A DNA stretch of 62,342 nt, from the NCBI RefSeq assembly GCF_020991365.1, contig NZ_JAJLRA010000032.1, positions 1-62,342 of the forward strand, read 5' to 3'. Shown piece after piece: positions 31,772 through 34,761 of the stretch; position 1 is the stretch's first letter, and every line of letters begins with the position of its first letter. The notes beneath the pieces were generated by a model. That model was not told where the DNA came from and made no database searches. It saw only the letters and a program-made list of their open reading frames with translations. Source of the stretch: Streptacidiphilus sp. ASG 303 (GTDB lineage: Bacteria > Actinomycetota > Actinomycetes > Streptomycetales > Streptomycetaceae). Made by a program: the position numbers and the translations under genes.

Positions 31772-32317
31772 ATGCGCACAACCGCGTTCGCACGCCGCGG
31801 AGCTCCGGTCCTGCTGGCGGCCGCGCTGCTGGCGGCCTGCTCGGCAGGGCACGGCGGCACCGCGGCGCCGGTCTCCGACGACGCCACCCCGGCTGCGGCT
31901 CCGGCCTCCCCCGGCGGCCCCGCCGCGGAGGACTCCGGGTCACCCGCTGCGGCCCCCGCCGGGTCGTCGAGCCCCTACCCGACCAGCGAGGCGGCGCCCG
32001 GCGCGGCGGTGCCGGCGGTCCGCGACTCCTTCGCCGTGCTCCAGGCGACCTACAACGACGGCTGCGGAACCCCGGGGAACTGCCGGTACTTCCTCACGAG
32101 GGTGCTGACCGACCTCGACGACCTCGGCGCGTCGATGAAGGCGGACCCCCAGGGCGCGGAGCACTTCCACGCCCCCCTCGCCTGGATCGGGGCCATGCAG
32201 GCGGCTCTCGGCGGCGACGTCTCCTTCCCCAACCTCAGGCGGCACCAGGACCTCCTCGTCGGCACCCGGGACAGGATCAACACGTGGATGCAGTCGCACC
32301 CCGAGGACTACCGCTGA
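31772..32317 (+). CDS. Putative lipoprotein of unknown function
   Basis: The 181-residue product has a clear lipoprotein signal (LLAAALLAACS, predicted lipidated Cys23), an Ala/Pro/Ser linker to about residue 75 and a helical C-terminal domain with a CGTPGNC cysteine pair. I do not recognise the domain. GGGGGGAC-like purines lie before the ATG. It stands alone between the DUF3152 gene and the damaged phosphatase gene. Confidence 0.75.
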   Translation: MRTTAFARRGAPVLLAAALLAACSAGHGGTAAPVSDDATPAAAPASPGGPAAEDSGSPAAAPAGSSSPYPTSEAAPGAAVPAVRDSFAVLQATYNDGCGTPGNCRYFLTRVLTDLDDLGASMKADPQGAEHFHAPLAWIGAMQAALGGDVSFPNLRRHQDLLVGTRDRINTWMQSHPEDYR

Positions 32318-32393: not shown

Positions 32394-32832
32394 GTGACGG
32401 CCTCCACCTGGGACCCCGCGGCGGCGGGTGTGCTGCGCCTGCCCTCGGGCCGGCGCGTTCCCACGCCTCGCGCAGCGCCTCCCGGGCCGCGGCCCGCCCG
32501 GACCGCCGCCGGACTTCGCCCTCCACCTGCTGGGCCGCCGGCCCGCGCCCGTGCCCTGGGAGGCCCGGTGGCTGCGATGGCCCGACTTCCGGCTGCCGTC
32601 CGACCGGGCCGCGGCCCGGGAGGCGCTGCGCGAGGCGTGGGAACGCGCCGGGTCCGAACGCGTCGAGGTCGCCTGCGGCGGCGGGCGCGGCCGGACCGGC
32701 ACCGCCCTGGCCTGTCTCGCCGTGCTCGACGGCGTTCCCGGGCCCGAGGCGGTCGCCTACGTCCGCGCGCACTACGACCCGCGCGCCGTCGAGACGCCCT
32801 GGCAGCGCCGCTTCGCCGCCGCCTTCGCCTGA
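32394..32832 (+). pseudogene. Disrupted tyrosine-phosphatase-like gene
   Basis: The N-terminal segment (GTG at 32394: TASTWDPAAAGVLRLPSGRRV) and the C-terminal part lie in different frames. The C-terminal part contains PWEARWLRWPDFRLP, the phosphatase loop VACGGGRGRTG with a C-x5-R signature, and VETPWQRRF. Between them, the stretch that should encode the RGRG-like segment is replaced by an exact inverted copy of the gene's own downstream sequence. A shorter frame from about 32428 still covers the catalytic loop, so a truncated protein could be made. In intact actinobacterial relatives, as I recall them, both parts are one roughly 140-residue protein. Confidence 0.7.
32450..32651. repeat. Perfect 47-bp inverted repeat inside one gene
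   Basis: Positions 32450-32496 are the exact reverse complement of 32605-32651, with a 108-bp spacer. The right arm encodes conserved protein sequence in the correct frame (RAAAREALREAWERAG); the left arm does not, so the left arm is the newcomer. The pair could form a very stable cruciform or RNA hairpin. Confidence 0.97.
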
Positions 32833-33101
32833 CACGCCCTCACCCTGGTCCCGGAGGAGGTCGACCGGTGTCGCGGCCGCCGGCGCCACGGCGCCGCGGA
32901 GGAACGCGCGAACCGTCCCCGTCCCCAGCCGCGGCCCGGGCCCGCTGCCGGACGGCAGCGGCACCTTCCGAGAGGAGCGGCCGCCACCGCCTCCGCGAAG
33001 ACCGCACCGGCCCCCAATTCTTCATATCCTCGAACTCGCCCGGCACTTGACGCGGGAGCACATGTGCTGAATCATTCAGGCGGTAAGGATGTGAGATTCA
33101 G

Positions 33102-33374
33102 GTGAATTCCGACAGCACTTCCCCATCGGGCGGCACCTCTCGGATACGGGCGATTCCGCACACCATTTCCGCCGTCACCGAGGCCCTTCCTCATGCCCGA
33201 CGCGGAGATTTCCGCGCCGCCGTGGCCGGGGCCGGGGAGGGGGGCGGCCTGGACACGGTGATGACCGCATGGTGGCTCGAAGCCATGTTCGAGTCGGTCC
33301 CCGGGCGGGACCAGCGCCTCGACGACACCGTCGCCGCAGTGGGGCTCGTCGAGCTTCCGGAGGAGGAAGGCTGA
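33102..33374 (+). CDS. Small acidic protein, possible antitoxin-like partner
   Basis: The 90-residue product is acidic and mostly helical after residue 15, with ALPHARRGDFRAAVAGA and a WWLEAMFESVPGRDQRL block. I do not recognise it firmly, though the pattern recalls small actinobacterial antitoxin-like DUF proteins. The GTG start has only a weak ribosome site. Codons are less GC3-biased than neighbours. Its stop overlaps the next ATG as TGATG, so the two genes are coupled. Confidence 0.6.
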   Translation: MNSDSTSPSGGTSRIRAIPHTISAVTEALPHARRGDFRAAVAGAGEGGGLDTVMTAWWLEAMFESVPGRDQRLDDTVAAVGLVELPEEEG

Positions 33375-33697: not shown

Positions 33698-34096
33698 GTG
33701 GGGGCCGATGGCGGGAATGGGGAAGAGGCACGGTTCCCGCAGGTGCCGCCTTCAGGACGCATGACACAACGGCGGGACAAAGCCACAGTCGGCCGCGGCC
33801 CGGAAGGCGTTGACCGTCCCCCGACCGTGACCTCGGACGTCTACCCCGAGAACGACTCGGGCGGCGGCGCGGGCGTACCCGGCACCTTCACCTTCACCCC
33901 CGAGGTCAAGGGCGCGGTCAGCTCCACGTACTCCGTCAACCGGGACGAGGGCACCACGGTGCAGGCCGGCGCCCGCAGCGGGGCGCAGATCTCGTGGACC
34001 CCGCCCGAGAGCGGCTGGTACGCCCTGCAGGTCCACGGCACCATCAAGGACGGGGCCAGGACGGCTTCGGCCTTCTGCTCCTTCACCGTCAACTGA
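33698..34096 (+). pseudogene. Remnant of a secreted Ig-like/LamG repeat protein
   Basis: From about residue 41 the frame reads PPTVTSDVYPENDSGGG, then GVPGTFTFTP and SGWYALQVHG. This is the Ig-like repeat seen, as I recall, at the C-termini of large streptomycete LamG/DNRLRE surface proteins. There is no signal peptide, and the first 40 residues look like out-of-context sequence. It is best read as the surviving tail of a much larger gene, possibly trailing the toxin-like pair upstream. Expression as a 132-residue protein cannot be excluded. Confidence 0.55.
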
Positions 34097-34263
34097 CGTG
34101 TTCTGCAGGTCCGGAGGGGCGCAGGCTGCGGCCTGCGCCCCTCCGGCGCACCACCGGGCGTGGTGCCGCGCGGTCCTCCTCGACGGCGGGCAGGCGCCGG
34201 GCCACCCGGGCGGAGGGGGCGCGGGGCGCGCCGGGTGTCGGCGGCACCCCTTACGGTGCGGCC

Positions 34264-34761
34264 ATGAGCATGATCGGGCACTACCTGCGCGTCACGCCGG
34301 CCGAGCTCGACCGGGCCGTCAAGGACCCGGGTTGGGCGCTGGAGCACATCGAACAGGTTCAGGACGCAGAAGAAAAGACGGACTTCCCCGCCTCGGAAGC
34401 GCGGCACTTCAGCACCGACAAGTGCTGGGACGTGCTGGGCTTCCTCCTGCGCCGCGCCGCCTTTCCCGTCGATGTCGTGCATGGCGACGAGCCCGTCACG
34501 GACGACGACTGGGGCTACGGGCCACCCATGTGCCTCCCGGCCGACCGTGTCCGCTTCGCTGCCGGGAATCTCGACCGGGTCGGCTACGACGACCTGGTCC
34601 GAGGAGTCGATCCCGCGGAAGTGGGCCGGGCAGGGGTCTATCCCTTCATCTGGGACCGCCCCGAGGCCCTGGAGTGGGCCCGCAGCCGGTACGACTCCCT
34701 GGTGGCCTTCTTCTCAGCAGCAGCACGCACGGGTGATGCACTGCTGATCTGGCTGGACTGA
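34264..34761 (+). CDS. DUF1877 (YfbM-like) family protein
   Basis: The 165-residue cytoplasmic product resembles the DUF1877 family: MSMIGHYLRVTPAEL at the N-terminus, DKCWDVLGFLL in the middle and a C-terminal LVAFFSAAARTGDALLIWLD. The family has no established biochemical role and often appears near polymorphic-toxin or accessory loci, which fits the neighbouring remnants. A second ATG two codons downstream is possible as start. Confidence 0.8.
   Translation: MSMIGHYLRVTPAELDRAVKDPGWALEHIEQVQDAEEKTDFPASEARHFSTDKCWDVLGFLLRRAAFPVDVVHGDEPVTDDDWGYGPPMCLPADRVRFAAGNLDRVGYDDLVRGVDPAEVGRAGVYPFIWDRPEALEWARSRYDSLVAFFSAAARTGDALLIWLD

What the first reader, a model, noticed from the sequence alone, without database searches (positions are those of the whole stretch)
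32394..32832. Gene rewritten by a perfect 47-bp inverted copy of its own coding sequence
Positions 32450-32496 are the exact reverse complement of 32605-32651. The right arm codes for conserved phosphatase sequence in frame; the left arm replaces the expected N-terminal segment and shifts the frame. This looks like a template-switch or hairpin-mediated mutation, a rarely documented event in actinomycetes, or alternatively a programmed invertible or cruciform element. A chimeric read or assembly error is possible but less natural for an inverted internal copy.
Basis: partly seen in the sequence, partly recalled or inferred. Interest (0 to 1): 0.78.

Follow-up and report, generated by a model that had tools for sequence, protein, structure and literature searches.

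The report
Gene broken by fold-back copying mistake
In this bacterium the DNA-copying machinery apparently folded back on itself and wrote a backwards copy of one part of a phosphatase gene over its beginning, most likely breaking the gene; the kind of mistake is known, but this is a long and clean natural example.

Summary
Window 32450-32496 is the exact reverse complement of 32605-32651 (47/47), with a 108-nt spacer. It is the longest perfect inverted repeat with a spacer up to 2 kb in the 2.06 Mb examined of this 6.99 Mb draft genome. The right arm is native phosphatase coding sequence. The left arm has written over a segment (RGR[GA]...) present in 109 of 109 homologous loci compared. About 27 native nt became 34 nt, so the frame shifts (+7). 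Best explanation: one quasipalindrome-primed replication template switch. The nascent strand complementary to the gene folded back at a pre-existing imperfect hairpin (32497-32518 / 32583-32604), copied the right arm and returned at a short homology. The unmutated same-genus homologue has that imperfect hairpin in the same register (15 of 22 pairs; window 16 of 22); it looks like a by-product of the encoded protein. The gene is probably inactive: the normal start now reads out of frame, and the structure prediction of the remaining ORF is poor and lacks the N-terminal strands. A programmed invertible element is not supported. An artefact is unlikely but cannot be excluded without reads. The mutation class is known from E. 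coli, yeast and apes; this is a long new example.

The parts
32394..32459 (+). Native 5' end of the phosphatase gene, GTG start, VTASTWDPAAAGVLRLPSGRRV; the copied tract overlaps its last bases
   Evidence: Same residues and frame as the homologues (TWDPxxxGVLRLPSGRLV); left flank 32424-32453 is 87% identical to the same-genus homologue L010 (30 nt). The start codon is inferred from homology.
32450..32496 (+). Left arm of the inverted repeat: the reverse-complement copy
   Evidence: 47/47 match to the reverse complement of 32605-32651; no inverted repeat over 14 nt in this region in 109 of 109 homologous loci
32460..32493 (+). 34 nt of copied sequence where about 27 nt coding for RGRGLRRPL is expected
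   Evidence: RGR[GA] at this place in 109 of 109 homologous loci; alignment of the 34 nt with native 27-mers scores no better than with shuffled ones (mean -1.5 against 0.9); PSG-to-WPDF distance 136 nt against 129 nt (43 codons) in 104 of 109
32497..32604 (+). 108-nt spacer (hairpin loop), native orientation and native coding sequence
   Evidence: Collinear with homologues; right flank from 32500 is 81% identical to L010 over 278 nt
32497..32518 (+). Left half of the pre-existing imperfect hairpin (quasipalindrome)
   Evidence: Pairs with 32583-32604 at 16 of 22 positions; 15 of 22 in L010; mean of 109 homologous loci 11.0 against 6.7 in 24 other registers
32583..32604 (+). Right half of the pre-existing imperfect hairpin (quasipalindrome)
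   Evidence: As above
32605..32651 (+). Right arm: native coding sequence (DRAAAREALREAWERAG region), the template of the copy
   Evidence: Encodes residues aligned with the 28 homologues
32428..32832 (+). Remaining phosphatase-frame ORF, 134 aa from an internal GTG; catalytic loop CGGGRGRTG at 32674-32700 (counted by hand)
   Evidence: Pfam PTP-SAK PF22784 E 8e-8 and Y_phosphatase PF00102 E 1.8e-4, both above cut-off; predicted model poor and without the N-terminal strands
32394..33050 (+). What the normal start now reads: 22 native residues, then 196 out-of-frame residues to a stop
   Evidence: ORF list; no Pfam match up to E 1; translation

Best explanation
A single quasipalindrome-primed template-switch mutation broke this phosphatase gene, recently. 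INFERRED mechanism: while the strand complementary to the gene was being synthesised (right to left in window coordinates), its 3' end reached about 32494-32497. It folded back through the imperfect 22-nt stem 32497-32518 / 32583-32604 (64-nt loop), used the stretch it had just made (32605-32651) as template, then re-annealed to its proper template through a short homology (CCGGC, 32450-32454). SHOWN: the exact 47-nt inverted copy, its absence from the 109 homologous loci compared, the loss of a conserved segment, the +7 length change and frameshift, and a matching imperfect hairpin in the unmutated same-genus homologue. INFERRED: loss of function, because the normal start now reads 196 wrong residues and the only listed phosphatase-frame start lacks the conserved N-terminus. 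The confidence given is for a template switch of either version; of it, 0.25 goes to the inter-strand version listed among the rivals.
For: 47/47 inverted identity, an outlier in 2.06 Mb of the same genome. 109 of 109 homologous loci carry RGR[GA] at the replaced place and none has an inverted repeat over 14 nt there. PSG-to-WPDF is 43 codons in 104 of 109 (44 in 4, 45 in 1) but 136 nt, 45.33 codons, in the window. The junction with up to 3 mismatches occurs in 1 of 394 genomes of the family, the own one. The imperfect hairpin: window 16/22, L010 15/22, mean of 109 loci 11.0 against 6.7 (sd 2.1) in 24 other registers; codon resampling gives 10.3, so it follows mostly from protein sequence and codon bias. 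The altered arm is the one that the complementary strand synthesises second, as fold-back predicts. A chance origin of the 34 nt has log10 P about -16.4, against about -5.6 for choosing a nearby source (rough). AlphaFold2, best of five models: native homologue L039 pLDDT 87.7, pTM 0.86, strands at 11-13 and 19-24; window ORF pLDDT 61.9, pTM 0.52, residues 1-24 under 50.
Against: No raw reads, no second strain and no close sister (the nearest held relative differs by about 19% in the right flank), so an artefact is not excluded and the ancestral sequence and exact switch points are not known. The two positions at the inner edge (32497-32498) do not pair, so priming must rest on the CCG homology beyond them or on a bulge. 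L010's 15 of 22 pairs are not significantly above its own codon-resampled mean of 12.5 (7% reach 15). The spacer is long: in yeast, template-switch repeats had shorter spacers than others (PMC8604942, passages; that study looked only at spacers up to 70 bp). An inter-strand switch gives the same product. Inactivity of the protein is predicted, not measured; the low model confidence extends over the whole chain and could partly reflect the unalignable N-terminus in the input.
Confidence: 0.84

Rival explanations
1. Library, PCR or assembly artefact: a fold-back chimera entered the consensus of a very GC-rich stretch of a draft assembly.
For: The genome is a 200-contig draft; the arm is 87% G+C. 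PCR polymerases do switch templates at inverted repeats, up to 1.54% of reads (PMC5218489, passages), and library preparation creates inverted-repeat chimeras seen as low-frequency calls (PMC10908179, abstract and passages).
Against: Such artefacts are minority reads in those two papers, whereas a consensus needs a majority. The sequence returns to native-like sequence on both sides of the copy. No comparable repeat is found in the 2.06 Mb scanned of the same assembly.
Confidence: 0.09
2. The same template switch, but between strands: the growing coding-sense strand jumped at 32450-32454 to the opposite template, copied 32651 back to 32605, and jumped home.
For: It gives the identical product; both intramolecular and intermolecular versions are described (PMC8604942, passages; Rosche et al. 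1997 seen only as a reference).
Against: Entry would rest on about 5 nt at the left edge, whereas the pre-existing 22-nt imperfect stem lies at the inner edge, where nascent-strand fold-back needs it.
Confidence: 0.25
3. A programmed invertible element or functional cruciform: the 47-nt arms flip the 108-nt spacer or regulate the gene.
For: Long perfect arms with a spacer; predicted single-strand fold of -123.4 kcal/mol against -76.6 in shuffles, z -12.4.
Against: No such arm in 109 of 109 homologous loci. Inverting the spacer breaks the phosphatase reading and restores no native reading in any of three frames. No recombinase family among the 9 neighbouring ORFs scanned (the rest of the window was not scanned).
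Confidence: 0.02
4. The altered gene is still functional: the 134-aa ORF is made from the internal GTG with a new N-terminus.
For: The ORF is open with an intact catalytic loop, GC at third positions of 0.95, and 29 synonymous against 21 nonsynonymous changed codons of 110 compared with L010.
Against: Those features are also expected of a recently broken gene. R21 G22 R23 G24 L25 of the lost segment are invariant in the 28 homologues aligned, and the predicted model degrades to pTM 0.52 with residues 1-24 under pLDDT 50. I see no clear ribosome-binding site before the internal GTG (by eye on the sequence printed; none is clear before the normal start either).
Confidence: 0.1

Closest known systems
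Quasipalindrome-associated template-switch mutation of E. coli (lacZ reporters; Ripley model)
   Same: An imperfect inverted repeat becomes a perfect or more perfect one; the nascent strand is used as template (PMC7202029, passages).
   Different: The reporters there correct a 4-bp frameshift at a palindrome. Here 47 nt are copied across a 108-nt spacer, about 27 native nt are replaced by 34, and a conserved gene is frameshifted in a natural genome.
Short-range template switches in great ape genomes (four-point model)
   Same: Local reverse-complement templated change with switch and return; median copied length 12, maximum 128 (PMC7954356, passages).
   Different: Bacterial, in a coding gene; 47 nt is above that median but within the range.
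Template switching in Saccharomyces coding genes
   Same: Homogenisation of inverted-repeat arms inside genes (PMC8604942, passages).
   Different: The longest arm in the passages seen is 16 bp and the changes described there are amino-acid substitutions; the study searched spacers up to 70 bp. Here a 47-nt arm, a 108-nt spacer and a frameshift.
Coding palindromes of Nematomorpha mitochondria
   Same: Long perfect inverted repeats inside genes; template switching named as one possible mechanism (PMC6649704, abstract and passages).
   Different: There both arms code for conserved residues and the proteins are thought functional; here the copied arm destroys conserved sequence.
Dual-specificity/tyrosine phosphatases (VHZ/DUSP23-like fold)
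   Same: Model of the native homologue L039 matches 4erc and 2img (Foldseek E 1.5e-6 and 1.5e-5, TM-score about 0.6); CX5R loop present.
   Different: The window copy has lost the conserved N-terminal segment.

Membership tests
Quasipalindrome-associated template-switch mutation | Pre-event imperfect inverted repeat at the switch site | tested here: met
   L010 15/22 and window 16/22 in the same register; mean of 109 homologous loci 11.0 against 6.7 in 24 shifted registers; the true ancestor is not known
Quasipalindrome-associated template-switch mutation | Event makes the inverted repeat perfect or more perfect | tested here: met
   47/47 perfect in the window; longest perfect repeat 7-14 nt in the 109 homologous loci
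Quasipalindrome-associated template-switch mutation | Changed sequence is a copy of the other arm, which stays native | tested here: met
   Right arm collinear with homologues, left arm not
Quasipalindrome-associated template-switch mutation | Arises during DNA synthesis (polymerase-dependent) | not testable with these tools
   Needs experiment
Quasipalindrome-associated template-switch mutation | Short homology at the return point | tested here: inconclusive
   CCGGC at 32450-32454 fits native codons of homologues, and CCG at 32494-32496 fits the codon for P in L010; the true ancestor is unknown
Programmed invertible DNA element | Two orientations, at least one giving a working product | tested here: not met
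   Neither the sequenced nor the inverted spacer gives the native reading
Programmed invertible DNA element | Conserved repeats in relatives | tested here: not met
   0 of 109 homologous loci; junction in 1 of 394 family genomes, its own
Programmed invertible DNA element | Adjacent recombinase | tested here: inconclusive
   None among the 9 neighbouring ORFs scanned; the rest of the window was not scanned
DSP/PTP-fold phosphatase | CX5R catalytic loop | tested here: met
   CGGGRGRTG in the ORF; PF22784 and PF00102 above their cut-offs
DSP/PTP-fold phosphatase | N-terminal strands of this subfamily | tested here: not met
   Window ORF pTM 0.52, residues 1-24 under pLDDT 50 and no strand before residue 30; native model has strands 11-13 and 19-24, pTM 0.86
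Sequencing or assembly artefact | Reads without the arm | not testable with these tools
   No reads available

The most novel reading that the evidence does not exclude
The conserved protein sequence of this phosphatase family forces an imperfect DNA hairpin into its gene (GPxPDF near the start against WPDFxLP), so the family carries a built-in hotspot for fold-back template switching and is repeatedly broken by it across actinomycetes, which would help explain its patchy presence.
Probability: 0.08. Interest if true: 0.62.

Novelty: new member of a known kind. Interest (0 to 1): 0.4.

Why it matters
The bacterial evidence for this mutation that I saw comes from reporter genes or speaks of small changes. 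A natural event this long, with template, product and the matching imperfect hairpin in an unmutated relative all visible, points to the polarity of the copying and gives a testable case in a G+C-rich bacterium. It also warns gene annotators that a frameshift of this sort can be one mutation and not a sequencing error.

Tried and rejected
Programmed inversion: rejected by homologues and by the frame test. Chance: rejected. A second intact copy of the gene in the genome: none found by DNA (where the 17 other own-genome hits are short matches) or by protein (where the only second own hit is the inverted arm). Synteny as a test of orthology: the 48 kb of G001 around its homologue match the window only over the gene itself. 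In G002 the upstream gene has a relative, but the 20 kb taken there match the window nowhere else. So the sequences compared here are homologous loci, the nearest from the same genus, and not all proven orthologues. Replication direction (leading or lagging) could not be assigned in a draft contig. Whether the family is a recurrent hotspot was not tested beyond the 109 loci (0 other inverted repeats over 14 nt); G049 and G063 carry homologues with a stop and were not examined. NCBIfam gave no family for two proteins. Paper searches served for background; one search listed nothing on the subject. PMC5941160 on inverted repeats in proteobacteria is not held.

Full report
WHAT WAS CHECKED. The inverted repeat is real: 32450-32496 is the reverse complement of 32605-32651 at 47 of 47 positions, separated by 108 nt. 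The repeat finder extends it, imperfectly, to 69 nt at 91%. The longest inverted repeat in 20 Markov-simulated windows was 22 nt at any distance and 17 nt within 1 kb. I scanned 2,062,342 nt of the same genome, window included, for perfect inverted repeats of 14 nt or more with spacers up to 2 kb. This one is the longest. The next are 34 and 33 nt with loops of 2 and 1 nt, which look like terminator hairpins (my reading, not tested). With a spacer of at least 30 nt the next are 28 and 27 nt with spacers of 1.9-2.0 kb, then 25 nt with 133 nt. The genome is a 200-contig draft of 6,985,763 nt, 99.5% complete by the tool's figure.

WHAT THE GENE IS. The ORF 32428-32832 matches Pfam PTP-SAK (PF22784, E 8e-8) and Y_phosphatase (PF00102, E 1.8e-4), both above their cut-offs. 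There is also a match below cut-off to Tc-R-P, a phosphatase family named after polymorphic toxin systems (E 6.3e-4, 20.7 bits against 27), which I do not take as a sign of toxin function. 55 of 100 genomes searched, the own one included, have a match. I compared 109 homologous loci: 29 and 80, all that those two calls handed over apart from the window's own. They are the best-scoring ones, so broken or distant copies are under-represented, and one pair (L020, L083) shows the same sequence and is probably one genome. The AlphaFold2 model of the homologue L039 resembles VHZ/DUSP23 (4erc, Foldseek E 1.5e-6); a profile search of PDB sequences also finds DUSP23.

WHAT CHANGED. In all 109 loci PSGRxx or its equivalent is followed by RGR[GA]. 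From PSG to WPDF there are 43 codons in 104 of 109, 44 in 4 and 45 in 1; in the window there are 136 nt, 45.33 codons, so +7 nt against the usual 129. The window keeps the start (VTASTWDPAAAGVLRLPSGRRV), then shows 34 nt (32460-32493) that align to the native 27 nt no better than to shuffled ones (mean score -1.5 against 0.9), then resumes native sequence (81% identity to the same-genus homologue L010 over 278 nt from 32500). None of the 109 has a perfect inverted repeat over 14 nt in this 300-nt region, and the few of 11-14 nt lie in other registers (8 loci). The residue R at 32454-32456 is L in 101 of 109 and R in 1, which fits the copy starting within 32450-32454. The junction, allowing 3 mismatches, occurs in 1 of 394 genomes drawn from the family, the own one; a diverged copy of it would be missed by that test.

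WHY A FOLD-BACK TEMPLATE SWITCH. Just inside the perfect arms lie 32497-32518 and 32583-32604, which pair at 16 of 22 positions. In L010, from the same genus and without the mutation, the same register gives 15 of 22. Over the 109 loci the mean is 11.0 (range 6-15) against 6.7 (sd 2.1) in the other 24 registers tested. Resampling synonymous codons gives 10.3 on average, so the stem is largely a by-product of protein sequence and codon bias. L010 is not significantly above its own resampled mean of 12.5 (7% reach 15). The window is (0.03% reach 16), but that stretch was chosen on the window, so the figure is flattering. A nascent strand complementary to the gene passes the right arm first and the left arm second. 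Folding back at this stem it would extend from the inner edge outwards, copying 32605 to 32651 into the left arm. Which arm is native and which is altered agrees with that polarity. Return would be through CCGGC (32450-32454). These steps are inferred; the anatomy is shown. Two unpaired positions (32497-32498) at the inner edge and the long spacer are the weak points. An inter-strand switch would give the same product.

HOW RECENT. The arms differ at 0 of 47 positions. Third codon positions of the retained part differ from L010 at 35 of 110, about 0.42 substitutions per site by Jukes-Cantor. If the arms drifted neutrally, about 20 differences would be expected at the age of that split, so the event falls in roughly the last 15% of that time. 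This is rough, and gene conversion between the arms would weaken it.

CONSEQUENCE. The normal start now gives 22 native and 196 foreign residues, with no Pfam match up to E 1. The only listed phosphatase-frame start is GTG 32428. AlphaFold2 gave, as best of five models, mean pLDDT 87.7 and pTM 0.86 for the native L039 (28-row alignment), with strands at 11-13 and 19-24. For the window ORF, put before the same rows, it gave 61.9 and 0.52, with residues 1-24 below 50 and lower confidence over the rest as well. Loss of function is thus likely but predicted. No second copy was found in the genome, and 45 of 100 genomes searched show no match, so the loss may be tolerated. As single-stranded DNA the region 32440-32660 folds at -123.4 kcal/mol against -76.6 for shuffles.

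RIVALS. A programmed invertible element fails two tests. A library or PCR chimera is conceivable in an 87% G+C arm. PCR template switching reached at most 1.54% of reads in one study (PMC5218489, passages), and library chimeras appear as low-frequency calls in another (PMC10908179, abstract and passages). A consensus with both junctions argues against it, but only reads can settle it.

WHAT IS KNOWN. Quasipalindrome-associated template switching is established in E. coli (PMC7202029, abstract and passages), in yeast genes (PMC8604942, passages) and in apes, with a median copied length of 12 and maximum of 128 (PMC7954356, passages). A review of bacterial mutation bias says that it causes small insertions, deletions or base changes (PMC10710837, passages). 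It has been traced in rRNA hairpins, including an actinobacterial loop inversion (PMC8794818, passages). Searches for template switching with Streptomyces, inverted repeat and mutation (4 papers, none on the subject by title and abstract start), quasipalindrom- with Streptomyces (0 papers) and quasipalindrome with Mycobacterium (4 papers, none describing such an event by title and abstract start) found no actinomycete gene broken this way. The library holds only open-licence papers. The event is therefore, as far as I can see, a long and clean new member of a known kind.

Noticed in passing
G000:C156:117954-120004 (L227 and L228): Two perfect inverted matches of 27 and 28 nt with spacers of 1.9-2.0 kb; possibly an inverted pair of similar genes or domains (not looked at).
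   Followed up: no
G000:C88:28521-28857 and G000:C111:176068-176250: Clusters of neighbouring 20-25 nt inverted repeats with spacers of 4-182 nt; possibly smaller copying events or intergenic repeats.
   Followed up: no
window 31772-32317: Putative small lipoprotein gene directly upstream with no Pfam match; a relative (73% DNA identity over 343 nt) lies in the same-genus genome G002, where the 20 kb taken matches the window nowhere else.
   Followed up: partly
G001:C1:611597-612029 (L010, L179-L181): The same-genus homologue of the phosphatase sits in a different neighbourhood (48 kb compared), and no match was found in G002, so the gene may move or be lost easily.
   Followed up: partly
G049:C1:1777467-1777670 and G063:C82:9063-9326: Homologous stretches with one stop codon inside: other possibly broken copies of this phosphatase.
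   Followed up: no
window 33698-34096: ORF of 132 aa with no Pfam match, next to an ORF with a weak below-cut-off DUF6247 hit (33102-33374) and a DUF1877 gene (33994-34761).
   Followed up: no
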